DNA of 64,000 bases, taken from assembly GCA_009387755.1 (NCBI GenBank), contig GG697240.1, forward strand, positions 1-64,000, read 5' to 3'. This DNA comes from Candidatus Micrarchaeum acidiphilum ARMAN-2 (GTDB taxonomy: Archaea; Micrarchaeota; Micrarchaeia; Micrarchaeales; Micrarchaeaceae). A model generated the notes under the pieces. It worked only from the letters and a program-made list of their open reading frames with translations. It was not told the origin of the DNA and did no database searches. Positions 26,783-63,566 of this stretch are shown in pieces (the stretch's first letter is position 1; every line of letters begins with the position of its first letter). The translations under genes were made by a program, and so were the position numbers.

Positions 26783-27672
26783 CCCAGAGCCCTTGAACTG
26801 GCTTCGAAAAGCGCTTTCACTATTTCATCAGAATCGTTCGGCATTTTGGAAACCTTGAAGTTTATGCCTTTGCTTTTGCAGAGCGATCCCAATACGATTC
26901 CGGCGTCGTACATTGTTTCGAGGTTGTCAGTTACGAATCCTATCGGTATTATTGCCAGATTCTTGATGCCGGATTCAGCCAGTTCGGCTACTTTCTGCTC
27001 TGCCGAAGGCCCTATCCAGCGGCCCGGCATGTCTGCCGCACTCTGGAAGCAAAGGGTCCAGCTGTTGCCGAACTGCGCCTGCACCTTTGCACATGCCTCC
27101 AGAATCTGATCTGTGTATACTGCAAGATCGTCTTCCGGCGTCACAGGCATGCTGTGCGCAGTAAACAGCAGCATATAGCTGTCATCTATTCCAAGTTTGG
27201 AGATTTCGTTCTGCCAAGCCTTTATAAGTCCGGGCTCCGCGCTCCACGAATTAACCTTGAAGATCTCCGGTTTCCATCCTATAGACGCAGCTGCAGCATC
27301 GACCATGCCAAAGTAGCTTTCGGCACTTATCTTTGAGTAGAAGGGGGCCACAGGCACGCACGCTAGCCTTTCTATGCCCGCATCTGCAGCGGATTTTAGC
27401 GAATCTAGTATGTAGGGCCTTGAATACTTCATCCCCACAAACACCTCTGCGGCTTTCCCGGTCTCAGACATCATGCGCTGCAATTTTTTTGCCTGGCTGA
27501 AGGTTACTTCAAGGAGCGGGGATCTGCCGCCTATAGCCCTGTATCTTTCGATCAGCCTTTTGAGCTGCTCTGGTGGCGGCTTTTTGCCCCGGAGTATGTT
27601 TGTATAGTATTCTTCGACCCCGTCGATGCCCGGCGGAGTGCCATAAGCCATCAGCATTATTCCATCAGTCAT
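26776..27672 (-). CDS. hemH: ferrochelatase (coproporphyrin ferrochelatase type)
   Basis: A 298-residue ferrochelatase: MLMAYGTPPGIDGVEEYYTN, RYRAIGGRSPLLEVT, GMKYSRPYI, LLFTAHSMPV with the metal-delivering His, QSAADMPGRWIGPS, and IIPIGFVTDNLETMYD (catalytic Glu region). Soluble, short and without a [2Fe-2S] C terminus, it is like Gram-positive-type enzymes that insert iron into coproporphyrin III. Its start overlaps the hemQ stop (ATGA), and its end overlaps the converging hemE stop by 7 bases. Confidence 0.94.
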   Translation of the reverse strand: MTDGIMLMAYGTPPGIDGVEEYYTNILRGKKPPPEQLKRLIERYRAIGGRSPLLEVTFSQAKKLQRMMSETGKAAEVFVGMKYSRPYILDSLKSAADAGIERLACVPVAPFYSKISAESYFGMVDAAAASIGWKPEIFKVNSWSAEPGLIKAWQNEISKLGIDDSYMLLFTAHSMPVTPEDDLAVYTDQILEACAKVQAQFGNSWTLCFQSAADMPGRWIGPSAEQKVAELAESGIKNLAIIPIGFVTDNLETMYDAGIVLGSLCKSKGINFKVSKMPNDSDEIVKALFEASSRALGY

Positions 27673-40537: not shown

Positions 40538-42673
40538 TTACCTGCCCTTTTGCCTGCGGGCAAGCGCATAAGCGAATATTACCGCCACCACTATTATTAT
40601 TAATGCAGCAATTATGCCGCTGTCGTTGCTGGAGGGTTTTGGCACGGCTGGTACGGTTGTCGCGGGTGTAGTGGTAGGCGCAATAGTGGTGGTTGGAACT
40701 GTGGTGTTTGCGTATAGTGCGACTATCGGGTCTGATGAAACGCTGAATGATATAGTGCATGTTACCGGGTTTACAGTGTAAGGCACTATTGGTTGCAGCG
40801 AACCGTTCACGAGTTCGTATGGCGCAGTTGGGTATCCTGATGCGCAGTCATAGGTAGTGGTTATGTTTGCGGTTATGCTGCCTGCAGAGGTAAAGTTTAG
40901 TATGAATGCCTTAACCATTGTGTGGTTGGCGAAGAACGGCAATGTGCCAGTGTAGTTTGCAATTGTGAAATTGACGTTAGTCGAATTTGGAGAAGGAGTT
41001 GCAAATGAAACGAACATGCCCAGGTTGCCGAAGCTAATGTTAAAGGGCTTTCCGGCCGATGTACCGAAAGATCCAGTATATGAAGCTGTTGAACTGGATA
41101 TGTTTAGAGTGTGTTGCGGCACGGTTGTCGTTGCAGTAGAGGTTGTAGTTGAATTGACAATGTACAGCACGGTTGTCGTTGCAATCGAGGTAGATGTGCT
41201 GGTTGCATGGCCTGAACCCGGCGCTTGCACTTCGTATGCGTAGGTTATGGAGTCTGCGGAATAGTTGGCGTTGCCTGTTTCATTGAAAGTGTAGGTATAG
41301 AGCCCTATTGAGTTTGAACCAGTGTAAGTTATAGTGTTGGACGTGCTGCCTACAAGCGTTCCGTTTAGATAGAGTTTGGCGGTTATCTGGCTGTTGTATG
41401 TTTCTATCGAAGCAATCGTATTGCATGACAGACCATCGACAGTATAGGTGCTGCAGGACTGGGGGAACGACATTTTCGGCGCTGCCTTGTATATAGAATA
41501 ATTTCCAATCGAGAATCCTTCTGCATATACAACGTTGCCTGTGTTGTAGAACTCAAAGGAGTAGTTGCCAGCAACTGCGGGTGCGTTGTAGGCAATCGAC
41601 CCAAAACCGGCTGTGGAAGAGTCAACCTTTGAATATGGGCCACCGTTCACTGACATGTATAGGTTGCCTATTGCGTTTGACGGAGATATTGAAGCGGTTA
41701 CGGTTGCATTAGAGCCATTGTATACGAAGCTGCGTGGCACAGAAATTGAAGTATGCGCAGCCGCAGCAGATATCACAAAATTTTCTATTATGTTTGCTGG
41801 GGTGTAGTTTGCATTTCCAGGCGTTTCGAATTCAAGTGTGTAGTTGCCCACGTTTATTGCGTTGATCGGCGCGGTCTGTACATGGCCCGGCGCATTTGCC
41901 GAATAGGTTGCGATAGTATTGCCATTTAGCATCAGTGTGCCGCCTAGTGGCTGCAATGTATTGGATATTGAGAATGTTGCAGTTGCGTTTATGGAATTGC
42001 CAGTGTATACGTAGCTAGAAGCTATTCCAGACAAGTGGATGTCTGGCGTTGCCTTTGATATAGTGTATATGTCGTTTGAAACGCCTATGCCGGTGTAGTT
42101 CGAATTTGGTATCTGGAAGTCAAGCGCATATGTGCCTGCAGCTGCAGGGAGAGAATATTCGGTTTCAGGGCTTAGTTTTATTGCGACAATCGTATAGTTA
42201 TTTGCTTCGTTTTCATATCCAGAAGGTCCTATAAGGTAAACCGTCCCATTTTTTCCCGTAAAGGCATAGTAAGGATCTTCGTAGAATGGTACTGTTTGAA
42301 TGCCGCCGACTTGGGCGTTTGTAGTGGTATTCAGAACTACTACGCCGTACGCATATGATCCAGAATACCCGCTAGAAGATGGATCGTAGCTAAAAAGATA
42401 GACATTGCCTCCGGACACGGCAGATATATACGGATAGTATACCGGAACGTTTTTTACAGTAGATCTTGTATGGGTGTTGTACACTTCAACATACTCTCCA
42501 TAATATATAGGTATATACAAGTATTCACCATTGGATGATATTGATATTTGGCCGGTATCCTCCTCGGATGTTGGTATTCTGTATTGCAAGGTGTTTGTAG
42601 TTGTATTTATTACTGTAAAATCATAGTAGTATCCTGAAACATAGAGGTGCCTGCCGCTGGGCGAAAGCACCAT
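40538..42673 (-). CDS. C-terminal part of giant beta-propeller/Ig-like surface protein (split by frameshift)
   Basis: The 711-residue frame starts at an internal ATG but its real beginning is the upstream frame at 42610-46461. It first completes a YVTN-type beta-propeller (HLYVSGYYYDFTVINTTTN), then has several Ig-like/MBG-type repeats beginning like ATPDIHLSGIASSYVYTG and SISVPRSFVYNGSNA, a Thr/Ser-rich region with poly-T-S-T runs, an extracellular domain near residues 560-650, a Thr/Pro-rich stalk, one helix (IIAALIIIVVAVIFAYALA) and a basic end RRQKGR. It should be a cell-wall-exposed adhesin anchored by its C terminus. A single inserted base near 42690 in the run CC would join the two frames. 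Confidence 0.8.
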   Translation of the reverse strand: MVLSPSGRHLYVSGYYYDFTVINTTTNTLQYRIPTSEEDTGQISISSNGEYLYIPIYYGEYVEVYNTHTRSTVKNVPVYYPYISAVSGGNVYLFSYDPSSSGYSGSYAYGVVVLNTTTNAQVGGIQTVPFYEDPYYAFTGKNGTVYLIGPSGYENEANNYTIVAIKLSPETEYSLPAAAGTYALDFQIPNSNYTGIGVSNDIYTISKATPDIHLSGIASSYVYTGNSINATATFSISNTLQPLGGTLMLNGNTIATYSANAPGHVQTAPINAINVGNYTLEFETPGNANYTPANIIENFVISAAAAHTSISVPRSFVYNGSNATVTASISPSNAIGNLYMSVNGGPYSKVDSSTAGFGSIAYNAPAVAGNYSFEFYNTGNVVYAEGFSIGNYSIYKAAPKMSFPQSCSTYTVDGLSCNTIASIETYNSQITAKLYLNGTLVGSTSNTITYTGSNSIGLYTYTFNETGNANYSADSITYAYEVQAPGSGHATSTSTSIATTTVLYIVNSTTTSTATTTVPQHTLNISSSTASYTGSFGTSAGKPFNISFGNLGMFVSFATPSPNSTNVNFTIANYTGTLPFFANHTMVKAFILNFTSAGSITANITTTYDCASGYPTAPYELVNGSLQPIVPYTVNPVTCTISFSVSSDPIVALYANTTVPTTTIAPTTTPATTVPAVPKPSSNDSGIIAALIIIVVAVIFAYALARRQKGR

Positions 42674-45600
42674 ATAGAAAGGATAGGAAACGAATCTGAG
42701 CCAAGGCTTATCTGTGTTATTGCATTTGTGGCAAGGTTTATGGCATCTATGCTGTTTGTACCGTAGTTTGACGCGTAGAGCACTGTGTCGTTCTTGCTAA
42801 GGACGTCGTAGTAAATCTCCGACGAGCTGTTTGGAAGAACTATGCTGTTTACAATCTTGTTTGTTGCAAGATTTAGTACCAATATGGTATTTCCTGCGTA
42901 TGATGATACATATGCATAGTCGGTAACGTTTGATATTGCAATGCCGTAAGATTCGAATCCGCTAGGCAGATATATTATGTCGTTGCCAAAGGTTGAGCCA
43001 GGAGGATAATAATAGACAGTATTAGACTCTGTAGTGAAATATGCAGTTCCGTTTTTACTTTCTGCCCCGGCATAGAATGGTACTGTTGTTATTCCGTTTG
43101 AGTTTAAAAGTGATGGTTTTGGCAGCGTATTGCCGTTTAAGGTTGCACTAAGGCCGAGCTGCGAGGCATTGGCATTATATGCAGTTACAGTGAAGTTTGT
43201 TCCTGTGTAAACTGAGTTTGAAGGAAGAGAGCTCACAACCTTTAGAGAGGCAGGGGATATTGTTAGTGTAGACACTGCGTTTGAGGGAACGTAATTGCCA
43301 GAAAGGACAGGAACCGCTTTCAAAGAATAGCTGCCTACTGCTGCAGGGCCTGTGTAAGCAAAGTTAAACTTTGTCGGGGCAGATATATTTTTTATTACAG
43401 TAATATTTTTAAGCTCGGTAAAGTTTTCATAGTTGATTAAGTATATGTCACTGCCATCCGTAACTGAATATTCAGTATAATTTGAACCTGTGTTTATTGA
43501 CCCCATCAGACTCCCAGAAGAAACGTTCACAATATAGGTAACGCTATTGGCTCTTAAAGAGCTATTGCTTGCGAAGACATACCCACCCAAAGCAGAAACT
43601 GCAGTCATCCCGCTTGGAATTCCAGAAATGGCGCTTAATGTGCCAGTAGCTGTATTGTATACAACAACACCAGTGCTGCCAGCATCTGCAGGTATGTACA
43701 GGTTAGAGCCGACCAGTGCCATATTTGAACCTGCTTTTGTTAAGTATTGGGAAAGTGATACAGCTGTTACTGTGTAGGTACTTGTGTTTATCAAATAAAG
43801 TGAAGAGGAATTTTCTGCCACATATATCGTATTTCCGTTCTGAGACAGTGCTATTGAGTACGGACCCGAGGAGCTCGGAAGCGACACATTTTTTATTACT
43901 GTGCCCGTGCTTGTGTTTACCACAGTTATGCTGTCAGTACCGTAGTCCGTTACATATAACAATTTCCCATCTGGCGAAGCAGCTATGTAATATGGTTTTA
44001 TTGAAGAAAGTAGCAAAGAGTTGCTGCTCAGTGGTATGTCTTTTTCCACTGTATTGGTGGATAAGTTAAAAACCGCCAAAGTGCCGTTAAGGTAGTTGGT
44101 AATGTAAGCATTGCCCGTGTTGTTCGGAATCACGATCCCTGTGGGGCCGTTTAGAAGGCTTGAGTTTATGTTTTTTACAACTGCACTGGTCTTGGTATTA
44201 ATTACTGATATTAAATTATAATAGTACGCTGGAGAATAAAGGTAAGTGCCGTTTTGCGACACTGCGGCGCCATAATAGCCGTAATAGGGGCTTGTCTTTA
44301 TGGGCATCAGCTCCAAATTTACTGGGAGTTCGGTGCTGCTTTGGACAAGAGTGTTGTTAACGTATAGGTCAATTCCAATCGTATTGCTGTAATATGTTGT
44401 AAGGCCGTAGCTTATTATCGCATTTGAGCCGTCGTAAGTGAAGCTGTTTGACGGAAGCACGGATATGCTTGGCTTGGGGTTATACTGGCTTATTATGTAG
44501 TTTGCCGTGGTGCTTTCTGCGCTGTAAATCGCGTTTGCGTCAGTAGCCAAAGTAAACGAGTACGATCCAGCAGATGCAGGTGCGTTGTATGTTATGGTAT
44601 TGGATGAAGACGTAAGCGCGACAACGTCAATGCCCGTGCCTCCGTTGACAGACATTATCAGGTTTCCGGTCAGGCCGGAAGGATACACCGACGCGGTTAC
44701 GGTTGCGTTTACTGCATTGTAGGTAAAGCTGGATGGGACCTCAAGAGACAGCGATGGAGTCAGGCTGTTTACCGTAAATAGTTTCGATGAAAACGCGGTT
44801 ACTGCGGGTGAAGCGCTGTCTGTAAGGGTCACGTTGGCGAAATATGTGCCTGGGTCCAGAGTGCCTGTTGAGTAGTTTGCAATGCCGTTATTTGCATTTA
44901 TTGTTACGCTATTGCTTTCGGTAAAGCCTGTGAATGGATTTGAAATTGATATAGCAACCGAATACGGCGGAGTGCCATTGACAGCCTTTATCTTGACCGT
45001 TGGGAAATTTGGATATGTCAATGAGTTAGATGATAGTGTCTCTATTATTTTTGGGGCTGCAGTTATCACGAAGTTGCCGGATAGGGATGAGTTTGTTTCG
45101 GGACCTGTGCCGCTAGAGTCTGCAACAGTTGCCTTCAGGTAGTATGTTCCTGGTGCAAGATCATTGCTCTGTATTGGTATATTCGCAGTATCAGAGGAAA
45201 TTCCGCCCAGGCTGAGGCCAGGTAGCCCTGTCATTAACGCATTTGATGTTGCATTATAAATGTAAACGTTGGCAGTGTATGGCTCTGTGCCGCCGGTCCA
45301 CGACAGCGATGCGCTGAAAGGCTGCCCCTGCTCTATGAGATTTGAGCTCAGGGATATGGAAGGTACGGACAAGGTGGGGCTTACGGTATATGTGATGCTG
45401 TCTGGAGAGCCGGAAGACTCAAATGTGTAGGGACTTGCACCGCCGTTGTTCGTTTCTTCATCTATCGCCTTTACGTAATAGCTGTAACTGCCAGGAGTGT
45501 TAGGCAAGTTAAATGTGAAGCTGCCTGAAGAGCCTGGCGAGTTTAATGTTAATGTATTGCCTATCTGTGAGCCGTTTTGCGCGGATATCAAAGACACTTC

Positions 45601-46461
45601 GAACGGGCCTATCCCACCATTAAGAGCGAAGCCAAACGTAGCAGACTGACCCTGATCATAATTAAAATTAGTGACTGATAGTCTGATTGTAGGCGTCCCT
45701 GCAACATATAGCGGCATTGCAGTAGAACTTTTAGTTTCCGGATTCCCATAGGAGCTGTCTTTCACTACTGCACAATAATATATGGTGCCTGTAGTCGTAG
45801 GAGACACAGTAAACGATTCTGAGTAAGTGGTTATGTCATTTGATGAATCTACAAGTGTAGCGCCAGATCCCCCACAGGAACTCGTAGAGCTTGAATACAA
45901 ATTAACTGTGAACGGAGGAGTTCCTGTAGCGAACGAGTTATTCGGGTAATTCCATTTGACCGTCATAATGGCTGATTGGCCAACGTCCAATGCGTTTGTA
46001 GAAAGAGAGAGTGTTGGAGTTACAAGGTTGTAATTTACAGTATATGTTGCTTTGGCCGATGCGATTTCAGCGCCGTTACCCGAATCATTGTATGTAGTAA
46101 ATGTTATGTTATATGGACCGTAAAGTGGCGCAAATGTCAAAGATCCATTATCCAGACAACCAGTATTTATATTAGTCCCGTTAGATATTAGGCTATAGTT
46201 ATAAGATTGGCCATTTGTTTCAGATGTTTCATTTATAAAACATTCACCGCCAAGACTTGTTTCGGCTTTTATTTGTATATCGTATGCCATAGTTGGAGTT
46301 CCGCTTCCGTTTGGGGGAAGACCAACCCCGGTTCCGGTAAAAGTAAATACGGTTGTTGTATAATTGTGGGAGCTTCTGGTGTCAACACTGACGTTCTGCG
46401 GGCTAATTGTGGCTGTACCTGCATGGCTTAGATGTATTATCGGTAAAGTAAAAACTAGCAC
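42610..46461 (-). CDS. N-terminal part of giant surface protein (Ig-like repeats plus beta-propeller)
   Basis: The 1283-residue frame carries a signal-like segment at its beginning (LVFTLPIIHLSHA), four to five Ig-like repeats up to about residue 700 (for example TPTLSLSTNALDVGQSA and VPSISLSSNLIEQGQP), then YVTN-repeat beta-propeller blades (PYYIAASPDGKLLYVTD, PYSIALSQNGNTIYVAE) and a second propeller. The annotated GTG start at 46461 leaves the signal peptide too short; in-frame codons KPLILLFAV lie upstream with no ATG. An ATG at 46493 would join in frame if one base were added between it and the following ATAAAG. The last 15 residues are out of frame with the continuation, which is the frame of the entry at 40538-42673. 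Confidence 0.8.
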   Translation of the reverse strand: MLVFTLPIIHLSHAGTATISPQNVSVDTRSSHNYTTTVFTFTGTGVGLPPNGSGTPTMAYDIQIKAETSLGGECFINETSETNGQSYNYSLISNGTNINTGCLDNGSLTFAPLYGPYNITFTTYNDSGNGAEIASAKATYTVNYNLVTPTLSLSTNALDVGQSAIMTVKWNYPNNSFATGTPPFTVNLYSSSTSSCGGSGATLVDSSNDITTYSESFTVSPTTTGTIYYCAVVKDSSYGNPETKSSTAMPLYVAGTPTIRLSVTNFNYDQGQSATFGFALNGGIGPFEVSLISAQNGSQIGNTLTLNSPGSSGSFTFNLPNTPGSYSYYVKAIDEETNNGGASPYTFESSGSPDSITYTVSPTLSVPSISLSSNLIEQGQPFSASLSWTGGTEPYTANVYIYNATSNALMTGLPGLSLGGISSDTANIPIQSNDLAPGTYYLKATVADSSGTGPETNSSLSGNFVITAAPKIIETLSSNSLTYPNFPTVKIKAVNGTPPYSVAISISNPFTGFTESNSVTINANNGIANYSTGTLDPGTYFANVTLTDSASPAVTAFSSKLFTVNSLTPSLSLEVPSSFTYNAVNATVTASVYPSGLTGNLIMSVNGGTGIDVVALTSSSNTITYNAPASAGSYSFTLATDANAIYSAESTTANYIISQYNPKPSISVLPSNSFTYDGSNAIISYGLTTYYSNTIGIDLYVNNTLVQSSTELPVNLELMPIKTSPYYGYYGAAVSQNGTYLYSPAYYYNLISVINTKTSAVVKNINSSLLNGPTGIVIPNNTGNAYITNYLNGTLAVFNLSTNTVEKDIPLSSNSLLLSSIKPYYIAASPDGKLLYVTDYGTDSITVVNTSTGTVIKNVSLPSSSGPYSIALSQNGNTIYVAENSSSLYLINTSTYTVTAVSLSQYLTKAGSNMALVGSNLYIPADAGSTGVVVYNTATGTLSAISGIPSGMTAVSALGGYVFASNSSLRANSVTYIVNVSSGSLMGSINTGSNYTEYSVTDGSDIYLINYENFTELKNITVIKNISAPTKFNFAYTGPAAVGSYSLKAVPVLSGNYVPSNAVSTLTISPASLKVVSSLPSNSVYTGTNFTVTAYNANASQLGLSATLNGNTLPKPSLLNSNGITTVPFYAGAESKNGTAYFTTESNTVYYYPPGSTFGNDIIYLPSGFESYGIAISNVTDYAYVSSYAGNTILVLNLATNKIVNSIVLPNSSSEIYYDVLSKNDTVLYASNYGTNSIDAINLATNAITQISLGSDSFPILSIWCFRPAAGTSMFQDTTMILQ

Positions 46462-46732: not shown

Positions 46733-47368
46733 TTAAGATTTGCCGCGCCTGCCAACAGTCTCCATCATGCCGCTGCCTTGGGCCTTTGCGCCCCTGTGCT
46801 GCATGGAGCCAGATGCCTTCCTATAGCCGTGCTTGTACGCGGCATGCACCATTACTGCTGCAATTAGGACGGCTATCAGAATTATCATGTATGCATTTCC
46901 CTGGCTGCGCCGGCCGGTAGAGCGTATCACACCCATAGATTCCTTGAATGAGGATATGTACATGCTTATGTCGAATGCCATTGCAAAGGAGTTGTAAAGT
47001 GCTATTATTATGCTCCATGCGCCGGGCTTCCTTACAGCTATTATTATTGACTGCACGGTTATTATGAATCCGAAGCCTATGATCAGTATGCCCAGGAAAA
47101 TGAAGTCAAAGCTGAGCAGGAACTGGAAGGAGGAAAGCGTTATGTACGAAGCGTAGTATGCCAGGAATCCCAGGACTATCGCCATTACGTAAGTGGCTCC
47201 CACGAGGCCGAGACCGACAGCAGAGTACGCCGCTGCCTTCCTGAACTTCGACTTGTCGCCCTTGGCTTTTATCGCGCCCAAGCTGTACCCGCCGGCATAG
47301 GCGTCCCACATCGATATGAGGAAGTCTACCGCAATTATTATTACTATGAATATGGCTCCGAGGCCCAA
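46733..47368 (-). CDS. multi-pass membrane protein, 211 aa
   Basis: Five to six membrane helices: an N-terminal one (AIFIVIIIAVDFLISMWDAY), then a basic loop (KAKGDKSKFRKAA), VGLGLVGATYVMAIVLGFLAYY, two more around FLGILIIGFGFIITV and GAWSIIIALYNSFAM, and one near the C terminus (AYMIILIAVLIAAVMVHAAY), followed by a basic tail. No transporter signature I can name. Located 117 bases after the GHKL-peptidase gene on the same strand, it may be its operon partner. Confidence 0.6.
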   Translation of the reverse strand: MGLGAIFIVIIIAVDFLISMWDAYAGGYSLGAIKAKGDKSKFRKAAAYSAVGLGLVGATYVMAIVLGFLAYYASYITLSSFQFLLSFDFIFLGILIIGFGFIITVQSIIIAVRKPGAWSIIIALYNSFAMAFDISMYISSFKESMGVIRSTGRRSQGNAYMIILIAVLIAAVMVHAAYKHGYRKASGSMQHRGAKAQGSGMMETVGRRGKS

Positions 47369-47485: not shown

Positions 47486-49324
47486 CTATTGCGCGCCCTT
47501 TTCCTTAGAGCTTTCGGCTGTGTCCCTGCCTGCGTTTTCATCCCTTTTCAGACTGAACACGCCCAGGCTCCTCATTATTTCTTCGTACCTGTCGCCCAGG
47601 TCTATGGCGAAGTACGGGCTTGCATCCCCGTGGCCGTCAACGAAGTGCGTCACCTCGTGGGCTATGACATTTATGGTTTTGTATGGATCGTCAAGGATGT
47701 CAGTCTTTATCATTATCCTGTCCCTGTATGTGATTCCCTCGGTATCGCCATCGCTTGAAGCAGTGTAGAAACCTACCGGCACTATGTCCACGTCCTTGAA
47801 GCGGCCGCTCAGCACACGTAGCTTGCTGCGGTCCAAAACGTCCGCGATGCCGGTGGCGCGCAGCAGCCCCGATGCCATGGCCTGGAACTCTATCACCGGA
47901 GGGGGCTTCTTTCCTTCCAGCGGCAGCAGCTTTATGCCTATGCCCTCGAAGAGCTTTGCAGCCTTGTCGAAGTTTTGCCTTTGGATCTCGGTCAGCGACT
48001 CCTGGCTTACCTGCTCCACGTTTGTCTTCTGCTCCACCACTTTTGGCGAATAGAATGGTATGCCCAGGCACCTGTTGAAGAACATTTCCCATTCAATGTT
48101 TGGGAGCTCTATTATCGAGCTTTCTGACAGTGTGTACTCCGCCTCTTTCCTCTGCGACGGATCCCTAAGGATTACAGGGTCCTCGCCGTATATCTCTTTT
48201 ATGGCCTCAATCCATTCCTTCTTTGCCGGCGCGTCTGCCACCGCGTCGAAATCGACGTTTGCTTCGAACGAGTCCTGGTTTTTATTTATCCAGTATATGA
48301 GCTCCTTTATGTGCTCCTTGCTGGCCAGGTTGGCTATTAGCCTGCCTGCGGCCATCTTTGCGCGGTACCAGTTCGGCACTATTCTGTCCTCGCCTGACAT
48401 CATGTCCTTTCCGCCGGGCGCGACGCCGTTGAAGTCGTAGCTGAACAGGCCGGTAAACCCGTAGTCGTTCCTGCCGTCGAGATCCGCAAGCGCTATGCCC
48501 CTTACATATATCTTGGGCGACCTTTCGACCATGAGCTTGTCGGTCAGGACCGATTTCTTTGATCTTATATCGTTGACTGCTATTATGTCCCTTGGGGCAA
48601 GGTCCACGAACATGCTGCGCATGAGCTTTGCCATCCTGCCCTCTCCTTCAACCATGTAGCACGTGCCCTTGAAGGCCGCCGAGTCCAGCTTCTTTATTTC
48701 CAAGGTAAGGACCTCCTTGCCGTTTTTGTCCTTTGACATTTTCGGCTCTATTATAGTATCGTTGGCAATGACCTTTATGTTTATGCCGGACCTTAGCAGG
48801 ACCAAGTATGCAATCTTCAGCCCGGAGCCGAAAACGCCTGCCAGGCCTTCCGCATTCTTCTTGTCGCCCTCTCCCAGGTACACTAGGCCGTCCATTGCCG
48901 CGCCCCTGCCGTTGTCCCATACATATAGGTCTCCGCCTTTGCTTGACACTCCGAACGTCGTTGCATAGCCCAGGGCTTTTTCGTCCCTGACGTTTTGGAC
49001 CAATTCCCTTATCGCCATCTCCTTGGACCAATCAAGCTTCCATTCTGAAGTTATGTTGGTGTCCTTGATGAAGGTCTCCTTGGGCATTCTCTCGAATATG
49101 CTGTGGTCCAGCTCTATGTCGTAGCTTTCTCGTTCCTTTTCTTTCTCCTTTTCCATCCGGCTTAGCGCAACGCGCTGCTGCCTTCTTGCAAGCGCGGGCT
49201 TTATCTCTGCTTTTGCAATTCGCGCGGAGCCATATGTAACTAAGAATGTTCCGAATATGGCGTCGAATGTCACGTTTGTGCCGAAAAACGGAGCAGATGG
49301 GTTCAGGAAGGGCAGCGCGCCCAC
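47486..49324 (-). CDS. GHKL-type ATPase fused to an HEXXH metallopeptidase
   Basis: 612 residues from the GTG at 49324. An N-terminal hydrophobic stretch precedes a GHKL (Hsp90/MutL/histidine-kinase type) ATPase: N-box REL-VQN with Glu107 and Asn111, DNGRG (Asp137) and GVFGSGLK at 163-170. The middle part (about 250-420) is a mixed domain; the last 150 residues contain HEVTH (556-560) with FVDGHGD following, a zincin active site, after VIRAT-like strands and VPVGFYTASS. The combination is rare. In-frame sequence with coding character (IFKTAKEGIKRHSAGLIG) continues upstream of the GTG to about 49411 without ATG, GTG or TTG; GGTGAAAAG lies before an ACG codon there. The next gene upstream ends at 49452. 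Confidence 0.78.
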   Translation of the reverse strand: MGALPFLNPSAPFFGTNVTFDAIFGTFLVTYGSARIAKAEIKPALARRQQRVALSRMEKEKEKERESYDIELDHSIFERMPKETFIKDTNITSEWKLDWSKEMAIRELVQNVRDEKALGYATTFGVSSKGGDLYVWDNGRGAAMDGLVYLGEGDKKNAEGLAGVFGSGLKIAYLVLLRSGINIKVIANDTIIEPKMSKDKNGKEVLTLEIKKLDSAAFKGTCYMVEGEGRMAKLMRSMFVDLAPRDIIAVNDIRSKKSVLTDKLMVERSPKIYVRGIALADLDGRNDYGFTGLFSYDFNGVAPGGKDMMSGEDRIVPNWYRAKMAAGRLIANLASKEHIKELIYWINKNQDSFEANVDFDAVADAPAKKEWIEAIKEIYGEDPVILRDPSQRKEAEYTLSESSIIELPNIEWEMFFNRCLGIPFYSPKVVEQKTNVEQVSQESLTEIQRQNFDKAAKLFEGIGIKLLPLEGKKPPPVIEFQAMASGLLRATGIADVLDRSKLRVLSGRFKDVDIVPVGFYTASSDGDTEGITYRDRIMIKTDILDDPYKTINVIAHEVTHFVDGHGDASPYFAIDLGDRYEEIMRSLGVFSLKRDENAGRDTAESSKEKGAQ

Positions 49325-49451
49325 TAGGGCGCCGTCTGCAGCCAGGACTGTGCCAATCAGCCCTGCGCTATGCCTTTTTATCCCTTCCTTTGCCGTTTTA
49401 AAGATTTGCGTCTTTTCACCTTTTTGGTTGCCGCATGCCCGCTGATTTCGC

Positions 49452-49886
49452 CTATTCCCTCAGGCCGAATCCATCCAATGTGGTTTTGCCCACAAAGGTA
49501 TCGTCTCTGTTTAAGAACTCAAGCTCCGAATCCGCAAGCCTGGCCTCGAAATAGAACGGGTAGTCCCTGCTGCTCAGGTCTCTGCGCTTCTGCACGCGCA
49601 GCCTTGCGAAGGTCAGTGCGCTGTCGTGGTGCGCTTCCATGAATTCCTTGACGGTCTTTTCAGCGGTGCCGCCGTCCACGTTATATATGAATATGTACAC
49701 ATTCTTTCCCGAATCGTGCTTGTACTTTGTCTTTATGAAAAGCGTGCAGCTTGCATTCTGCTCTGTATTCTTAGTTATGCCGACGAATTCTGCAGGCACG
49801 CATATCTTTCCGCCGCTGCCATAGGGTATGCGGTACAGGTCGAACACGCTATCGACCCTGAAGTCTTTTGCGTTTTTTGTCACCAT
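49452..49886 (-). CDS. uncharacterised protein, 144 aa
   Basis: A soluble protein with alternating beta and helix (LFIKTKYKHDSGKNVYIFIYN, FYFEARLADSELEFLN). It ends 128 bases before the annotated GTG of the GHKL gene and about 40 before its likely true start; same strand, so possibly same operon. No motif found. Confidence 0.55.
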   Translation of the reverse strand: MVTKNAKDFRVDSVFDLYRIPYGSGGKICVPAEFVGITKNTEQNASCTLFIKTKYKHDSGKNVYIFIYNVDGGTAEKTVKEFMEAHHDSALTFARLRVQKRRDLSSRDYPFYFEARLADSELEFLNRDDTFVGKTTLDGFGLRE

Positions 49887-49929
49887 TTAATTACCCAAGA
49901 TTTTACATATGGCAATTCTTTGCTTTTTG

Positions 49930-50274
49930 CTACTGCCATTCCGGGTGCATTGCGTAGGTCCAGAATTTGCTTATGGCTGCCTCGCTTGCCATGTTATCTA
50001 TCATTTCAGCGAAATTTTTGTTGCTGAACCTGTAAAGGTCGAGTATGAACCTTCCTGCTATGCCTTCGTCCTTGAGCTTTGCGAGTATGGAGGGTGCGTC
50101 GTAGGAGTTGCGTTTTGCGTACTCTGTAAAATCCTTCACGAGCCTTTCGACTGCTTCGTCATCCATTGTAAGCGCTTTGATGGCTGGCACGTCTGCGTCC
50201 AGCTGCTGCTTTGCATCCGCGTTTGAGGCTTCGGGCCTACTTGAGCTCTTTTTTGGATTAGGTACGGTTACCAT
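49930..50274 (-). CDS. uncharacterised helical protein, 114 aa
   Basis: I choose ATG 50274 because GGTG lies six bases upstream; a second ATG is 12 bases further. The N terminus is Ser/Lys-rich and probably flexible, the rest helical (DDEAVERLVKDFTEYAKRN, GRFILDLYRFSNKNF). No known family. Same strand as 49452 and the GHKL gene, 43 bases before the former. Confidence 0.55.
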   Translation of the reverse strand: MVTVPNPKKSSSRPEASNADAKQQLDADVPAIKALTMDDEAVERLVKDFTEYAKRNSYDAPSILAKLKDEGIAGRFILDLYRFSNKNFAEMIDNMASEAAISKFWTYAMHPEWQ

Positions 50275-50424
50275 ATTTTGCACCATCGCATCTTTAACGC
50301 AGAATGCATTTGGTTATATATAATATTTATACTTTTCACAGCCCCTGGCGCGAGGACTGATTCGCCGATTGACGAATACGCTGCAAGGTTAATAAGAATG
50401 CTAGGGCATAAAATAGCGTTGAAT

Positions 50425-57721: not shown

Positions 57722-60244
57722 ATGGATGCTGACGTGAAGGATATCTTTGACCTGGCATACGAGAACGCGCTTGCGCGCCGCGCACATGTCGATAGCAACT
57801 ACATTGATGCACTCAATCATGGCATTGAAGTTGCCCTTGGCAAGAAGGACGCCGCAGACTTAAGCGTAGAAGCAGGAAAGCTTGATTCCGTACTGCTTGC
57901 CTTGGAAAGCATAAATAGCATATGCGAAGCAAAGGCGTACAGCGAAAGCTTGGAATTCTTTCCGGTCAGGCACAGCATTTCTAGAGACACAAAGAGGAAG
58001 AGTATGGTAACCATAAGGCTAAGGGCGGGAGAGGCTAAATTCAAGACTCCGGATAGCGCCAAACCGGCAAATTCAAGCGCCACTACAATTGAGCGTAATG
58101 TGCATGAAACTGTAGCACAGGTTACAGCACGGCCAAAAAAGGAAACACCCGGCGCTATGGGATTTGCCGAAGTGGTAAACAGCAGCTATGAAAAAATTGC
58201 AGAGCATTACAAGAGGCTGAGCAAGGAAGAGTACGGCATAGAATTCAAAGTACCTGAAGTCAGAATGTTTTCAGATGACAAAGCAGAGCCCGACAACGAA
58301 TCGAAATTTAAAGCGGGCGTCTTGGGCTACTACAAAGACTCTGAAAACACCATTCATCTAACTAGGGCGCTATATGAAAAATATTTATTAAATGATACCT
58401 CGATCCGCAATGAGGATATTTATTTGACATTGGAGCATGAACTCGGACATGCATTTGCTACGCAGATGGGCTATGACAAAACTTATGGGCTACGCGGCGA
58501 ATACTATGGCAGCAGCCGCCTAAGATACAGGGGGATAAGAGATATTGTTGCCTCAGAATTTTTGGCAAACCTTTTCGGGGCAAGGATTGATATCGAGATT
58601 AAAGGCGCATCTCCCACAAATAAAGCTCTGGCCGATGAGCTCCTCAATCAGGCGACACTTGACTACTTATACAAGGATACAGATGCAGCAAAGATTTATT
58701 TTGATACGCTTTTGAAAAAATCCAAGGAGCTCATGGATAAGCACGCCGAAATTAAGACTGAATTCAAGAAAAAGAAGCGCGACTACACTGACAATGGTGG
58801 TGAGATAGACTTGGGATACTTTAAAACTTACCTTCTTGAAGCCACTGCAGAGGCCATAACGTACTTGAAATTCATAGAAGACGGGCTTTCTGCGCTGGAG
58901 ATTTATGGCGGACCTGTGCTAGGGGCTGTAAAGGCTCTTGAGGAGGGAATGAGTTTCGACAGGCTGGTCAGCAAGGCGTCGAAAAATATAAAATCCTTGA
59001 AATATGTAAAAGAATACTTTCCTGGCGCGGCCGCGGTAGAATACTCAAGCCTGTATTCGTCTTTTGATCTCTTTGAAAGCCTGGGCCCGTATATGACGGA
59101 CGTGCTTGGCCTGAGCACAGATCAAAACAAAAATTTGAATCCAGAAAAGCGCATGCGCGATGAACTTGAAAAATGTGAGGATGCAATAGGAGGGATGGAG
59201 GGGTACTTTAAAAGGATGGAGCGCGTGGGCAGGGACATGTACGAAAACGAAAAGAAGGTCCTTGGCGAAATGGAAAGGCTTAAGAAAGAATTGAATGGCG
59301 CCCTACCTGGGCCGGGCGGGAACAAAGTCCAAGCGGCCAATGCGGATATGCAGATGTACAACATGCTGGATAACAGCGCAATCGAGCTTCATGACATTGC
59401 CAGGCGCCTCGAATCCGAGTTTAATGGAGCAAGTGCCAAAGAAAAACTGCAAGACAAAGCATTCTTATATTCATTATTGGATGACCTCGGGAAAATGGTG
59501 TTGCGCGATCTGAATGGAATGATGAGGCTTGCGGCTGGAGACGCGTGGATTGACTTGAAGCCAAGCGATTTCAAAGTGGGGGAGGATATAGACGTCCCTG
59601 TATCTTTAGGAATTCTAGGAATTTACAAATCGAAGAGTTTCAGAGTAGATCCGTTTGAAGGTATCAAGAACCTCATTGAACCCATGGAAAGATATGAAGG
59701 AAACATTAGCGAACGCACTGCATACGATTTAGTAAGGCACCTATATCAGTTAGTAGTCCATGAGGGCTTTCATGCAGTACAGAATGAAAGATTAAATTCG
59801 GAAAAACAGGTAAATAGGGTCCTGCACGGCAAGGATACGGATATTTTCATAGAAGGCGGAGCCCATTTTGTGGAAAGGTATGTGAAGGCGCTCATAGAAG
59901 CTAGGGAGCGGGACAGGATTAGAAGCGCGGATGATATAAAACATATGTTCCTAGATGAATTTAATTTGTCGTCAGTTGCAAAATTGCTCGATGAAAAGCC
60001 CAGAAGTATAGCAGGTAAGCTGCATAAATATAGCGCGTATGACGTCGGCATGTTTATGTTTACGGTCAGGTACGTTGCGAACGGCAGCTTCATAAGCACG
60101 CTAAATGAAATCCGTAAAATGGCAGACGAAGATGGTACAGGCGGTATAAGCAACAGGAAACTTTACCAGATGTTGGACAGGGACATTGAAAATGGCAACG
60201 TTGCCAAGCTGAAAAGAGAGATTCAAGCGTACCGAATAAAGTAA
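57722..60244 (+). CDS. 840-residue protein with two separate HEXXH zincin sites
   Basis: The N-terminal 110 residues form a domain that recurs at the start of the partial gene at 63645. After a Pro/Ala/Ser-rich linker comes a first zincin, with His239-Glu-Leu-Gly-His243 and ASEFLANLFG (Glu279) about 36 residues later, the layout of ImmA/IrrE-like peptidases. A coiled, charged middle region (about 320-560) follows. The second zincin has His680-Glu-Gly-Phe-His684 and FIEGGAHFVERY about 30 residues later, a glutamate-type third ligand. No signal peptide, so it acts in the cytosol. Two independent metallopeptidase sites in one chain are unusual. A TATA-like AAATATAAATATC lies 35 bases upstream of the ATG. 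Confidence 0.75.
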   Translation: MDADVKDIFDLAYENALARRAHVDSNYIDALNHGIEVALGKKDAADLSVEAGKLDSVLLALESINSICEAKAYSESLEFFPVRHSISRDTKRKSMVTIRLRAGEAKFKTPDSAKPANSSATTIERNVHETVAQVTARPKKETPGAMGFAEVVNSSYEKIAEHYKRLSKEEYGIEFKVPEVRMFSDDKAEPDNESKFKAGVLGYYKDSENTIHLTRALYEKYLLNDTSIRNEDIYLTLEHELGHAFATQMGYDKTYGLRGEYYGSSRLRYRGIRDIVASEFLANLFGARIDIEIKGASPTNKALADELLNQATLDYLYKDTDAAKIYFDTLLKKSKELMDKHAEIKTEFKKKKRDYTDNGGEIDLGYFKTYLLEATAEAITYLKFIEDGLSALEIYGGPVLGAVKALEEGMSFDRLVSKASKNIKSLKYVKEYFPGAAAVEYSSLYSSFDLFESLGPYMTDVLGLSTDQNKNLNPEKRMRDELEKCEDAIGGMEGYFKRMERVGRDMYENEKKVLGEMERLKKELNGALPGPGGNKVQAANADMQMYNMLDNSAIELHDIARRLESEFNGASAKEKLQDKAFLYSLLDDLGKMVLRDLNGMMRLAAGDAWIDLKPSDFKVGEDIDVPVSLGILGIYKSKSFRVDPFEGIKNLIEPMERYEGNISERTAYDLVRHLYQLVVHEGFHAVQNERLNSEKQVNRVLHGKDTDIFIEGGAHFVERYVKALIEARERDRIRSADDIKHMFLDEFNLSSVAKLLDEKPRSIAGKLHKYSAYDVGMFMFTVRYVANGSFISTLNEIRKMADEDGTGGISNRKLYQMLDRDIENGNVAKLKREIQAYRIK

Positions 60245-60385: not shown

Positions 60386-61876
60386 TCATCTGCAAAATTT
60401 ATCCTTCTGAATTCCGTAGTGTCCTAGCACAAGGTACGACCTTACTGAAGTATAAATATATAAAGCTGCTTATCCACAACACTATTGGTGTTTGTTTCAA
60501 AAAATGACATAAATAGCGGACTGTGGTATAATGAGTTTTGTGGATTTTTTTGTTGAATCTTACAGGAAGGCATTCGGAATAATGCTTCATCCTGGGAAAA
60601 ACGCAAGAGGTGCACTTAGCGTTGGCGATGCACTGAAATTCTATTACACTATAGCGATAATACCTTTGATACTTGGAGTTGCCTTGTCCCTGCTGACAAA
60701 TGCAAGCTTCCTCAGCGTATTTGGAGGGTTTTCCGGAAGCAGTGCGTTGGGACCTGGCGCAGCCGCACCTGGTGGCGGACTGTATTTTGCATTATACCTT
60801 ATAGCGTTTTTCGCAGTCCTTGTGCCACTTGGCCTGTTATTTGACACCGCGATGTACCACGTAATAATAAAGTCGCTTTTAAAGATGTACAACAAGCCAT
60901 ACTCGACGGCATTTACTGCGTTCACCTACGCCATGATACCGGCGGTGCTTGTTTATTGGCTACTTCCATTAGGCATACTTGGGTATCTGGTAATACTGCT
61001 GTTTGGCTTGTGGAGCTTAGTAATAGAAATAATCTCACTTTCGAACCTGCTTTCTATAAGCAGGCTTATGGCGTTAGGTAGCCTCATACTTGACGAGCTT
61101 ATAGTTGCGGTAATATTATTCGGGGCGCTGTTCCTGGCAATTCTTGGTTCGGCGGGGCCGATGCTGCTAAATTCCTCCGTAATAAGCAGCAACCATTCCG
61201 TGCCTACAACCATACCCAACTATATTAACACAACCAGCATTGCAGTTCCGGCCACAACAATCCCAAGCACTAACACTAGCCAGAGCGGACCTTATTCCAG
61301 CATAGTAGGCACACAACCTGCTAGCACATCGTCTGCGAACTACTCTTCGTGTGCAAATTTTACAATATCAAATCCTAATGAATATAACCAGACAAGCCAC
61401 GCCAGCACTTTAGTATACGCCACATGCAAATGGGGTGGGGGCATGCTCTACGTTTATACGGCTGGAGGAAACTCCGGTTATGCGCATCTGAACATAAACG
61501 GAAGCAACGGCAAGACATATTTTGCCAATTCGACGAACTCGAGGTGCTATGCATATGCAGGTTCCTTCTATGCCCCGGCGCAGGATTACAAGCTTTGGAT
61601 AAGTGCGGGAGGAGGAGGCGGAATTTGCGGCAATGCAGCTGCACTGATCGTATCGGCCAACCATGTAAATACTTCGGCTGCAGCGCCCGGATCAAGCATA
61701 AAGCTTCCGTTCGGCAGCATGCTATTCTCCTCGAGCAGCACGCCGTCCAATGTCAGCTCCGCGGCCAACAGGATTCTTGGCAGCACGCAGCTTGATTTTT
61801 ATTCGAATGACAGTGCAAGAGTACTGCTTCAGAACGGAACAGAGATCTGGCTGGGCACCATCCCGTTAAACGAATC
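60386..61876 (+). repeat. tandem direct duplication, copy 1 (1491 bp)
   Basis: The unit starts at TCATCTGCAAAATTT in the intergenic region and ends inside the Yip1-like gene. The next copy follows immediately at 61877. Sequence is the same base for base apart from one 21-base gap relative to copy 2. The promoter (TATA-like TATAAATATATAAA at 60451-60464) is part of the unit, so both gene copies have the same upstream region. Confidence 0.95.
60451..60464 (+). promoter_or_regulatory. TATA-like element of Yip1-like gene copy 1
   Basis: A long TATAAATATATAAA run 67 bases before the ATG at 60531, duplicated at 61942-61955 before copy 2. The expected transcript start at about 60485 gives a leader of about 45 bases, containing the mini-frame ATG-ACA-TAA. 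Confidence 0.5.
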
Positions 61877-61901
61877 TCATCTGCAAAATTTATCCTTCTG
61901 A
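60531..61901 (+). CDS. Yip1-like membrane protein, copy 1 (C-terminus truncated by duplication)
   Basis: A 456-residue protein. The first 215 residues hold five to six membrane helices in a Yip1-like arrangement (FFVESYRKAFGIMLHPGKNA at the start is the family opening). After the last helix comes a Thr/Ser/Pro-rich extracellular segment, then a beta-rich domain with cysteines (ATCKWGG, SRCYAYAG, GGICGN). Compared with copy 2 the last shared helix lacks seven residues (FYIIIAV). The C terminus ends in HLQNLSF, which is the repeat's intergenic start read as protein; about 50 normal residues are lost. It may still insert in the membrane. Confidence 0.82.
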   Translation: MSFVDFFVESYRKAFGIMLHPGKNARGALSVGDALKFYYTIAIIPLILGVALSLLTNASFLSVFGGFSGSSALGPGAAAPGGGLYFALYLIAFFAVLVPLGLLFDTAMYHVIIKSLLKMYNKPYSTAFTAFTYAMIPAVLVYWLLPLGILGYLVILLFGLWSLVIEIISLSNLLSISRLMALGSLILDELIVAVILFGALFLAILGSAGPMLLNSSVISSNHSVPTTIPNYINTTSIAVPATTIPSTNTSQSGPYSSIVGTQPASTSSANYSSCANFTISNPNEYNQTSHASTLVYATCKWGGGMLYVYTAGGNSGYAHLNINGSNGKTYFANSTNSRCYAYAGSFYAPAQDYKLWISAGGGGGICGNAAALIVSANHVNTSAAAPGSSIKLPFGSMLFSSSSTPSNVSSAANRILGSTQLDFYSNDSARVLLQNGTEIWLGTIPLNESHLQNLSF

Positions 61902-63388
61902 ATTCCGTAGTGTCCTAGCACAAGGTACGACCTTACTGAAGTATAAATATATAAAGCTGCTTATCCACAACACTATTGGTGTTTGTTTCAAAAAATGACA
62001 TAAATAGCGGACTGTGGTATAATGAGTTTTGTGGATTTTTTTGTTGAATCTTACAGGAAGGCATTCGGAATAATGCTTCATCCTGGGAAAAACGCAAGAG
62101 GTGCACTTAGCGTTGGCGATGCACTGAAATTCTATTACACTATAGCGATAATACCTTTGATACTTGGAGTTGCCTTGTCCCTGCTGACAAATGCAAGCTT
62201 CCTCAGCGTATTTGGAGGGTTTTCCGGAAGCAGTGCGTTGGGACCTGGCGCAGCCGCACCTGGTGGCGGACTGTATTTTGCATTATACCTTATAGCGTTT
62301 TTCGCAGTCCTTGTGCCACTTGGCCTGTTATTTGACACCGCGATGTACCACGTAATAATAAAGTCGCTTTTAAAGATGTACAACAAGCCATACTCGACGG
62401 CATTTACTGCGTTCACCTACGCCATGATACCGGCGGTGCTTGTTTATTGGCTACTTCCATTAGGCATACTTGGGTATCTGGTAATACTGCTGTTTGGCTT
62501 GTGGAGCTTAGTAATAGAAATAATCTCACTTTCGAACCTGCTTTCTATAAGCAGGCTTATGGCGTTAGGTAGCCTCATACTTGACGAGCTTATAGTTGCG
62601 GTAATATTTTACATAATAATTGCTGTGATATTCGGGGCGCTGTTCCTGGCAATTCTTGGTTCGGCGGGGCCGATGCTGCTAAATTCCTCCGTAATAAGCA
62701 GCAACCATTCCGTGCCTACAACCATACCCAACTATATTAACACAACCAGCATTGCAGTTCCGGCCACAACAATCCCAAGCACTAACACTAGCCAGAGCGG
62801 ACCTTATTCCAGCATAGTAGGCACACAACCTGCTAGCACATCGTCTGCGAACTACTCTTCGTGTGCAAATTTTACAATATCAAATCCTAATGAATATAAC
62901 CAGACAAGCCACGCCAGCACTTTAGTATACGCCACATGCAAATGGGGTGGGGGCATGCTCTACGTTTATACGGCTGGAGGAAACTCCGGTTATGCGCATC
63001 TGAACATAAACGGAAGCAACGGCAAGACATATTTTGCCAATTCGACGAACTCGAGGTGCTATGCATATGCAGGTTCCTTCTATGCCCCGGCGCAGGATTA
63101 CAAGCTTTGGATAAGTGCGGGAGGAGGAGGCGGAATTTGCGGCAATGCAGCTGCACTGATCGTATCGGCCAACCATGTAAATACTTCGGCTGCAGCGCCC
63201 GGATCAAGCATAAAGCTTCCGTTCGGCAGCATGCTATTCTCCTCGAGCAGCACGCCGTCCAATGTCAGCTCCGCGGCCAACAGGATTCTTGGCAGCACGC
63301 AGCTTGATTTTTATTCGAATGACAGTGCAAGAGTACTGCTTCAGAACGGAACAGAGATCTGGCTGGGCACCATCCCGTTAAACGAATC
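61877..63388 (+). repeat. tandem direct duplication, copy 2 (1512 bp)
   Basis: Second copy of the unit at 60386, 21 bases longer because of the segment TTACATAATAATTGCTGTGAT at about 62609-62629. Beyond 63388 the sequence goes on into the proper end of the Yip1-like gene. The junction shares only a one-to-three base overlap (TCT), consistent with a micro-homology tandem duplication. Confidence 0.95.
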
Positions 63389-63566
63389 TGTCAGCCAGAT
63401 GAGCCTGTACTACAAGTCCTGGCCCGGCGGCTACGTTTCGGAGGGCATCAGATTCGAGAACATTGACTTGCTGATATCAGGCAGCGCCACTTCTGCAGTA
63501 GTTACGGCAACATATCCTGCAGATTCGAACTACACATTCGTAGTGGATTATGGAGGCGTGGGCTGA
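62022..63566 (+). CDS. Yip1-like membrane protein with extracellular cysteine domain, copy 2 (full length)
   Basis: The complete 514-residue version. Helices lie at about 45-65, 80-105, 115-140, 145-165 and 185-215, the last including FYIIIAVIFGALFLAIL. The stalk is Thr/Ser/Pro-rich (TTIPNYINTTSIAVPATT), followed by the cysteine-containing beta domain and a C-terminal SYYKSWPGGYV-like beta end absent from copy 1. Yip1-family proteins act in membrane traffic in eukaryotes; the archaeal relatives have no known role. It lies between a double-HEXXH gene and its paralogue. Confidence 0.85.
   Translation: MSFVDFFVESYRKAFGIMLHPGKNARGALSVGDALKFYYTIAIIPLILGVALSLLTNASFLSVFGGFSGSSALGPGAAAPGGGLYFALYLIAFFAVLVPLGLLFDTAMYHVIIKSLLKMYNKPYSTAFTAFTYAMIPAVLVYWLLPLGILGYLVILLFGLWSLVIEIISLSNLLSISRLMALGSLILDELIVAVIFYIIIAVIFGALFLAILGSAGPMLLNSSVISSNHSVPTTIPNYINTTSIAVPATTIPSTNTSQSGPYSSIVGTQPASTSSANYSSCANFTISNPNEYNQTSHASTLVYATCKWGGGMLYVYTAGGNSGYAHLNINGSNGKTYFANSTNSRCYAYAGSFYAPAQDYKLWISAGGGGGICGNAAALIVSANHVNTSAAAPGSSIKLPFGSMLFSSSSTPSNVSSAANRILGSTQLDFYSNDSARVLLQNGTEIWLGTIPLNESVSQMSLYYKSWPGGYVSEGIRFENIDLLISGSATSAVVTATYPADSNYTFVVDYGGVG

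What the first reader, a model, noticed from the sequence alone, without database searches (positions are those of the whole stretch)
47486..49411. Fusion of a GHKL ATPase with an HEXXH metallopeptidase
A clear GHKL ATP site (E-x3-N, DxGxG, GxFGSGLK) and a C-terminal HEVTH zincin site share one 600-residue chain with an N-terminal hydrophobic part. An ATP-gated peptidase of this makeup is not a family I know. Co-directional small genes of unknown function (49452-50274) and a membrane protein (46733-47368) could be its partners, making a candidate novel system.
Basis: partly seen in the sequence, partly recalled or inferred. Interest (0 to 1): 0.75.

Follow-up and report, generated by a model that had tools for sequence, protein, structure and literature searches.

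The report
ATP-gated Spartan-like protease in microbes
The gene joins an Hsp90/MutL-type ATP-driven clamp to a protease shaped like the eukaryotic enzymes that chew proteins off DNA (Wss1/Spartan); relatives occur widely in bacteria, archaea and phages, several beside the Mre11-Rad50 DNA-end repair genes, which suggests an undescribed way of clearing proteins from DNA.

Summary
Window 47486-49411 (minus strand) encodes one chain with a GHKL ATP site and a C-terminal HEVTH zincin. It is under purifying selection against a sister species. The fusion is not unique to this genome. One scan of species-representative genomes found 170 relatives; 77 of the 80 kept carry HExxH at the end of the same frame. 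They span most bacterial phyla, several archaeal phyla, phages and plasmids. No Pfam, NCBIfam or PADLOC model covers the full chain, and no paper I could search describes the fusion. AlphaFold models support both halves. The ATPase resembles TRAP1, GyrB and MORC2. The protease's best matches are yeast Wss1 (Z 10.5) and S. pombe Wss1 (9.2), with human Spartan lower (7.5). These proteases digest DNA-protein crosslinks. In seven lineages the gene lies within two genes of SbcD/Mre11, usually with Rad50, as a tight gene run in three DPANN archaea. Best explanation: an ATP-gated clamp that proteolyses DNA-bound proteins (inferred). Main rival: an anti-phage effector, since other copies sit among defence genes. 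The window copy is divergent, seems membrane-anchored and has no Mre11-Rad50 beside it, so its own role is less sure than the family's.

The parts
47486..49411 (-). GHKL ATPase-zincin fusion gene (641 residues read from 49411; first standard start GTG at 49324 gives 612 aa)
   Evidence: codon-position bias against the sister species 22/18/101
49226..49366 (-). N-terminal hydrophobic, probably membrane-associated segment (residues 16-62)
   Evidence: hydropathy scan; absent from most homologues in the alignment; low model confidence
49127..49225 (-). charged helix linking the hydrophobic segment to the ATPase (residues 63-95)
   Evidence: model helix 49-95
48587..49084 (-). GHKL (Bergerat) ATPase domain, residues 110-275, with E136/N140, D166xGxG and GVFGSGLK 192-199
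   Evidence: NF047352 E 1.5e-5; phrog_6077 E 2.6e-21; VIA Z 10-11 to TRAP1, GyrB, MORC2; invariance
48047..48526 (-). GHKL transducer/middle domain, residues 296-455
   Evidence: VIA alignments to TRAP1 and MORC2 run to residue 384-457
47567..48016 (-). Wss1/Spartan-like zincin domain, residues 466-615
   Evidence: domain model Z 10.5 to Wss1 5xbv; profile hit to Wss1p E 0.0028; SprT-like Pfam in 33 of 42 members at E up to 1
47645..47659 (-). HEVTH zinc motif, residues 585-589
   Evidence: H, E and H invariant in 94 of 94
47624..47626 (-). D596, candidate third zinc ligand
   Evidence: D in 91 and H in 3 of 94
49452..49886 (-). 144-aa gene upstream in the same run; conserved in order in the sister species, genus-restricted
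49930..50286 (-). 118-aa gene upstream in the same run; conserved in order in the sister species; Mre11_C Pfam hit below cut-off (E 0.02)
46733..47368 (-). 211-aa predicted membrane protein downstream, same strand; partnership untested because the sister contig ends inside the fusion gene

Best explanation
It is a membrane-associated member of a widespread, unnamed family in which a dimerising GHKL ATPase clamp (as in MutL, GyrB, MORC2 and Hsp90) controls a C-terminal Wss1/Spartan-like zinc protease. Most likely the clamp closes around DNA or a DNA-bound protein on ATP binding and brings the protease onto proteins stuck on DNA (covalent crosslinks or tight roadblocks). In several lineages Mre11-Rad50 then trims the cleared or blocked end. 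Shown here: the fusion, both folds, conservation of both active sites, and the recurrent Mre11-Rad50 neighbourhood. Inferred: peptidase activity, DNA binding, ATP gating, the substrate, and that the diverged window copy keeps this role at the membrane.
For: GHKL fold: TRAP1, GyrB, MORC2 Z 10-11; profile hits Hsp90 and GyrB; phrog_6077 2.6e-21. Protease fold: window zincin model ranks S. cerevisiae Wss1 Z 10.5/10.4, S. pombe Wss1 9.2/9.0 and human Spartan 7.5; profile hits Wss1p 0.0028 and S. pombe Wss1 0.0047; SprT-like Pfam in 33 of 42 members at a loose E limit of 1, best 1.3e-4. Active sites invariant. Mre11/SbcD lies within two genes in 8 of 80 cellular loci (7 independent) and Rad50/SbcC adjoins in 7 of those 8; all SbcD hits are at offset 2 or less although offsets to 5 were searched (P about 1e-7 under an assumed 1.5 SbcD per 2500 genes). 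Gaps of about 10 bases or less, or overlap, with Rad50 in three DPANN archaea. Some phage copies lie by helicase, SSB or exonuclease genes. E. coli SbcCD processes protein-bound DNA ends and T4 gp46/47 acts on topoisomerase adducts (PMC6945406); SPRTN cleaves MRE11 (PMC7870818, abstract).
Against: The window locus has no Mre11-Rad50 neighbour, and searches for SbcD_C and for a DPANN Mre11 found nothing in its genome (the second had no positive control). Only about a tenth of the sampled cellular loci have the Mre11 link; others lie among restriction, pAgo, Druantia and Gabija-like genes. The third ligand is Asp in place of the usual Wss1/Spartan His. The window protein departs from near-universal R341 (E here; R in 93 of 94) and E602 (A here; E in 77 of 94) and sits on a very long branch (5.04). 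Plain Foldseek of the protease domain gave no significant hit (best E 0.18); the Wss1 match comes from the second-look aligner and from profiles. No DNA-binding region was identified.
Confidence: 0.5

Rival explanations
1. It is an anti-phage or anti-plasmid effector: the GHKL clamp senses invading DNA or replication intermediates and unleashes the protease on a viral or host protein, with phage versions acting as counter-defence.
For: Neighbours match pAgo, PprPIWI, Druantia DruE, Gabija GajA, type IIG enzymes, methyltransferases and the Rad50-like LmuB model. The Natrinema plasmid copy lies near Piwi and phospholipase D genes. A stop-ridden copy in a related genome lies beside a subtilase and a Schlafen-type helicase. 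A GHKL domain proposed to control a C-terminal nuclease in a working defence protein is published (VcSduA, PMC12137116). Lamassu combines a Rad50-like sensor with varied effectors, including predicted proteases (PMC10586767).
Against: PADLOC has no model for the fusion. Neighbour match counts were not compared with a background rate. The most repeated neighbour pair is SbcD-SbcC/Rad50 with an Mre11 nuclease, not a Lamassu set. The window has housekeeping neighbours (mevalonate pathway) and no recognised defence gene adjacent.
Confidence: 0.3
2. The window copy is a membrane protein quality-control enzyme: an Hsp90-like ATPase feeding a zinc protease at the membrane, unrelated to DNA.
For: N-terminal hydrophobic segment conserved with the sister species; adjacent membrane-protein gene on the same strand; Hsp90/TRAP1 are among the top structural matches.
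Against: MORC2 and GyrB tie with the Hsp90 rows within about 1 Z unit. The protease half matches DNA-repair proteases rather than HtpX or FtsH. The extension is special to this genus, while the rest belongs to a family repeatedly found beside DNA-repair or defence genes.
Confidence: 0.13
3. The window copy is a degenerate, non-catalytic descendant.
For: Long branch, loss of R341 and E602 conservation, stop-ridden copy in a related genome, uncertain start codon.
Against: HExxH, D596 and all core GHKL motif residues are intact; clear purifying selection over 300 codons of the N-terminal half.
Confidence: 0.07

Closest known systems
Wss1 / SPRTN (WLM and SprT-like proteases of DNA-protein crosslink repair)
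   Same: Zincin fold (window domain Z 10.5 to Wss1, 7.5 to SPRTN), HExxH, profile similarity, a link to Mre11-Rad50 in some members
   Different: Asp (rarely His) in place of the third His ligand; fused to a GHKL ATPase; prokaryotic and viral; ubiquitin, SUMO or p97 motifs were not looked for
phrog_6077 phage GHKL proteins (unknown function, one annotated RIIA)
   Same: GHKL plus transducer, E 2.6e-21 over residues 117-372
   Different: the members read here lack the protease half (KF-1, SNUABM_01, PH1, Pluto, phi1_175008)
T4-type RIIA
   Same: N-terminal GHKL ATPase with a variable C-terminal part (PMC7824862); structural matches in BFVD
   Different: no sequence match of the window protein to RIIA PHROGs; similarity limited to the ATPase region
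VcSduA (GHKL-Shedu)
   Same: GHKL ATPase thought to control a C-terminal effector in one chain
   Different: effector is a PD-(D/E)xK nuclease, not a protease
MORC / MutL / GyrB GHKL clamps
   Same: ATPase plus transducer fold (MORC2 Z 10.5, GyrB 10.3)
   Different: no nuclease, Toprim or CW domain; a protease instead
Lamassu (Rad50-like LmuB plus effector)
   Same: Rad50-like neighbours of some family members match LmuB models
   Different: the neighbour is a SbcD-SbcC/Mre11-Rad50 pair; none at the window locus

Membership tests
GHKL ATPase superfamily | Bergerat motifs N (E-x3-N), G1 (DxGxG) and G2 (GxxGxG...K) | tested here: met
   E136/N140, D166-G170, G192-K199; conserved across 94 sequences
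GHKL ATPase superfamily | Bergerat alpha/beta fold with transducer | tested here: met
   AlphaFold plus VIA Z 10-11 to TRAP1, GyrB, MORC2
Wss1/SPRTN (WLM/SprT-like) zincins | fold | tested here: met
   Z 10.5 Wss1, 9.2 S. pombe Wss1, 7.5 SPRTN; plain Foldseek not significant
Wss1/SPRTN (WLM/SprT-like) zincins | HExxH | tested here: met
   HEVTH; 94 of 94
Wss1/SPRTN (WLM/SprT-like) zincins | third His zinc ligand after HExxH | tested here: not met
   Asp in 91 of 94, His in only 3; so similar in fold, not filed as a member
Wss1/SPRTN (WLM/SprT-like) zincins | curated Pfam cut-off reached by the window protein | tested here: not met
   no family for the window protein
Wss1/SPRTN (WLM/SprT-like) zincins | DNA-dependent proteolysis | not testable with these tools
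   needs biochemistry
phrog_6077 | profile match over GHKL and transducer | tested here: met
   E 2.6e-21, profile positions 5-243 of 366
T4 RIIA | match to RIIA PHROGs (2979, 612) | tested here: not met
   not among the hits of the window protein; fold similarity in the ATPase only
Lamassu | LmuA-LmuB operon | tested here: not met
   no PADLOC hit for the window gene or its three adjacent genes
Shedu / VcSduA | DUF4263 nuclease domain | tested here: not met
   no Pfam hit; C-terminus models as a zincin

The most novel reading that the evidence does not exclude
A prokaryote- and phage-wide class of proteases gated by a GHKL clamp, working with Mre11-Rad50 to strip proteins from DNA ends: a prokaryotic counterpart of Wss1/Spartan with its ATPase built in, and a kind of ATP-dependent protease driven by neither an AAA+ motor nor a proteasome.
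Probability: 0.4. Interest if true: 0.88.

Novelty: new variant of a known kind. Interest (0 to 1): 0.72.

Why it matters
Known ATP-dependent proteases use AAA+ unfoldases (general knowledge). A GHKL-clamp protease would be a different design. Dedicated proteases for DNA-protein crosslinks are known from eukaryotes (Wss1, SPRTN), while bacterial cytosolic ATP-dependent proteases were reported not to matter for survival after formaldehyde (PMC6945406). A Spartan-like protease beside Mre11-Rad50 in bacteria and archaea makes it testable whether prokaryotes have their own. The family is broad (at least 170 species-representative genomes from one pattern) and has no named model, so many genes now called 'ATP-binding protein' or 'hypothetical' could be assigned a testable function.

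Tried and rejected
Direct Pfam search of the window protein: nothing even at E 10. PADLOC: nothing for the window protein. Single-sequence PDB search: nothing useful. Viral scan with the window protein alone: no relative, because its patterns were too private; alignments of plasmid and phage relatives worked. Plain Foldseek of the protease domain: no significant hit, best E 0.18; the VIA second look was decisive. The Mre11_C hit in the 118-aa neighbour (E 0.02, below cut-off) is not relied on. Glu after the invariant Phe (77 of 94) was considered as third ligand; rejected as less likely because the window and G017/G085 copies lack it while keeping Asp, and because the Asp position is His in three Chloroflexota members, but this is not proven without coordinates. 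Partnership with the two small upstream genes: the 144-aa one is genus-restricted and neither is seen beside the G017 and G085 copies.

Full report
1. What is there. The minus-strand frame at 47486-49411 is real: against the sister-species copy (90% identical in the aligned part, cut by a contig end) codon differences fall 22/18/101 by position. The chain has a hydrophobic N-terminus, a charged helix, a GHKL ATPase (E136/N140, D166xGxG, GVFGSGLK), a transducer, and a C-terminal domain with HEVTH (47645-47659) and D596. The start is uncertain: GTG at 49324 gives 612 aa, while similarity to the sister runs about 29 residues further; an in-frame ATG there in the sister is one base out of frame here. 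The host has a small genome (1.01 Mb in 8 contigs) and mevalonate-pathway genes next door (read from the ORFs). I take it as a DPANN archaeon; this was not formally typed.

2. The fusion is a family. The protein has no Pfam or PADLOC match, but NCBIfam's sacsin-like ATP-binding domain reaches E 1.5e-5 (below cut-off) and the phage family phrog_6077 reaches 2.6e-21 over residues 117-372. Homologues in G017 and G085 keep GHKL plus HELDH. tblastn led to an Exiguobacterium phage, a Moorella phage, haloarchaeal plasmids, and Aneurinibacillus, Alkaliphilus and Euzebya plasmids with the same two-part make-up; the Aneurinibacillus and Alkaliphilus proteins have repeated ATPase-type units. One scan of 84,980 species genomes gave 170 relatives, 80 kept. 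In 77 of 80 the same open frame ends in HExxH; the three exceptions include a frame-broken copy (L057) and one cut short (L069). Viral contigs gave 41 more, many with a variant HExxH..DGxxxH end or no protease; one has a TerD domain in front (PF02342 E 3e-51). In the window's own phylum only a few of 301 genomes carry strong matches, some broken.

3. Both folds. The full model (pLDDT 76; ATPase core mostly above 90; HExxH region 84-96) aligns at Z 10-11 with TRAP1, HtpG, GyrB and MORC2 over residues 92-457. The protease domain folded alone (pLDDT 80) gave no significant plain Foldseek hit. The second-look aligner ranked S. cerevisiae Wss1 (Z 10.5, rmsd 2.7, 102 aligned), S. pombe Wss1 (9.2) and, lower, SPRTN (7.5, level with YbeY 7.6). 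Independently, a profile of the domain hits Wss1p at 0.0028 and S. pombe Wss1 at 0.0047 as its two best PDB sequences, and 33 of 42 members match Pfam SprT-like at a loose E limit of 1, best 1.3e-4. Across 94 sequences HExxH is kept in 94, position 596 is Asp in 91 and His in 3, and E136, N140, D143, G192, G195, G197 and K199 are kept in 92-94.

4. Neighbours. Clustering 979 neighbours gave one clearly recurrent protein in cellular genomes: SbcD/Mre11 in 8 loci (Actinobacteria, Demequina, Elusimicrobia, Nanoarchaeota, two Aenigmatarchaeota, two near-identical Novosphingobium), 7 of them also with SbcC/Rad50. All SbcD hits lie within two genes; the chance of 7 or more among the 614 neighbours of the cellular loci is about 1e-7 at an assumed 1.5 SbcD per 2500 genes (the rate is my assumption). 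In the three DPANN cases Mre11, Rad50 and the fusion form a gene run with gaps of about 10 bases or less, or overlaps. These loci fall in several parts of the tree: the parsimony count is 3 changes, though starred branches force only one. Other loci lie among defence genes, without a background comparison.

5. Mechanism. Wss1 and SPRTN digest proteins crosslinked to DNA; Mre11-Rad50, including E. coli SbcCD and T4 gp46/47, acts on protein-blocked ends (PMC6945406). GHKL proteins with a transducer close on ATP binding, several of them around DNA (general knowledge), and in VcSduA a GHKL domain is proposed to control a C-terminal nuclease (PMC12137116). I therefore favour an ATP-gated clamp protease for DNA-bound proteins (0.5). 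The defence reading is the main rival (0.3). For the window copy itself certainty is lower: N-terminal membrane segment, long branch (5.04), two departures from conserved residues, no Mre11-Rad50 beside it and none found in the genome by two searches.

6. Novelty. Ten full-text searches of open-licence papers found no description of a GHKL-zincin fusion; subscription papers were not searchable. Both halves are known kinds; the combination and its Mre11-Rad50 linkage appear new.

Noticed in passing
57722-60244 (+): 840-aa ORF with two HExxH-type motifs (EHELGHAF and VVHEGFHAVQ) and no Pfam match; only a below-cut-off NCBIfam hit to Hvo_1808.
   Followed up: partly
60531-61901 and 62022-63566 (+): Two nearly identical membrane-protein genes in tandem; a recent duplication or an assembly artefact.
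   Followed up: no
40538-42673 and 42610-46461 (-): Two overlapping frames of one giant surface-type repeat protein, possibly split by a frameshift.
   Followed up: no
24144-27672: ORFs that look by eye like a late haem-biosynthesis set (HemC, HemD, HemE, ferrochelatase) in a 1-Mb archaeal genome.
   Followed up: no
L021/L148 (IMGVR_UViG_3300001239_000050): TerD-GHKL-zincin triple fusion, 672 aa, on a viral contig.
   Followed up: partly
L068, L074, L091 (Chloroflexota): Family members with His in place of the conserved Asp after HExxH, a natural ligand swap.
   Followed up: partly
G152, L111: Stop-ridden family copy beside a subtilase and a Schlafen-group-3-type helicase gene.
   Followed up: partly
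BFVD A0A3Q8Q6V3 (Sulfolobales Beppu filamentous virus): 595-aa archaeal virus protein matching the model at E 1.6e-10; not read.
   Followed up: no
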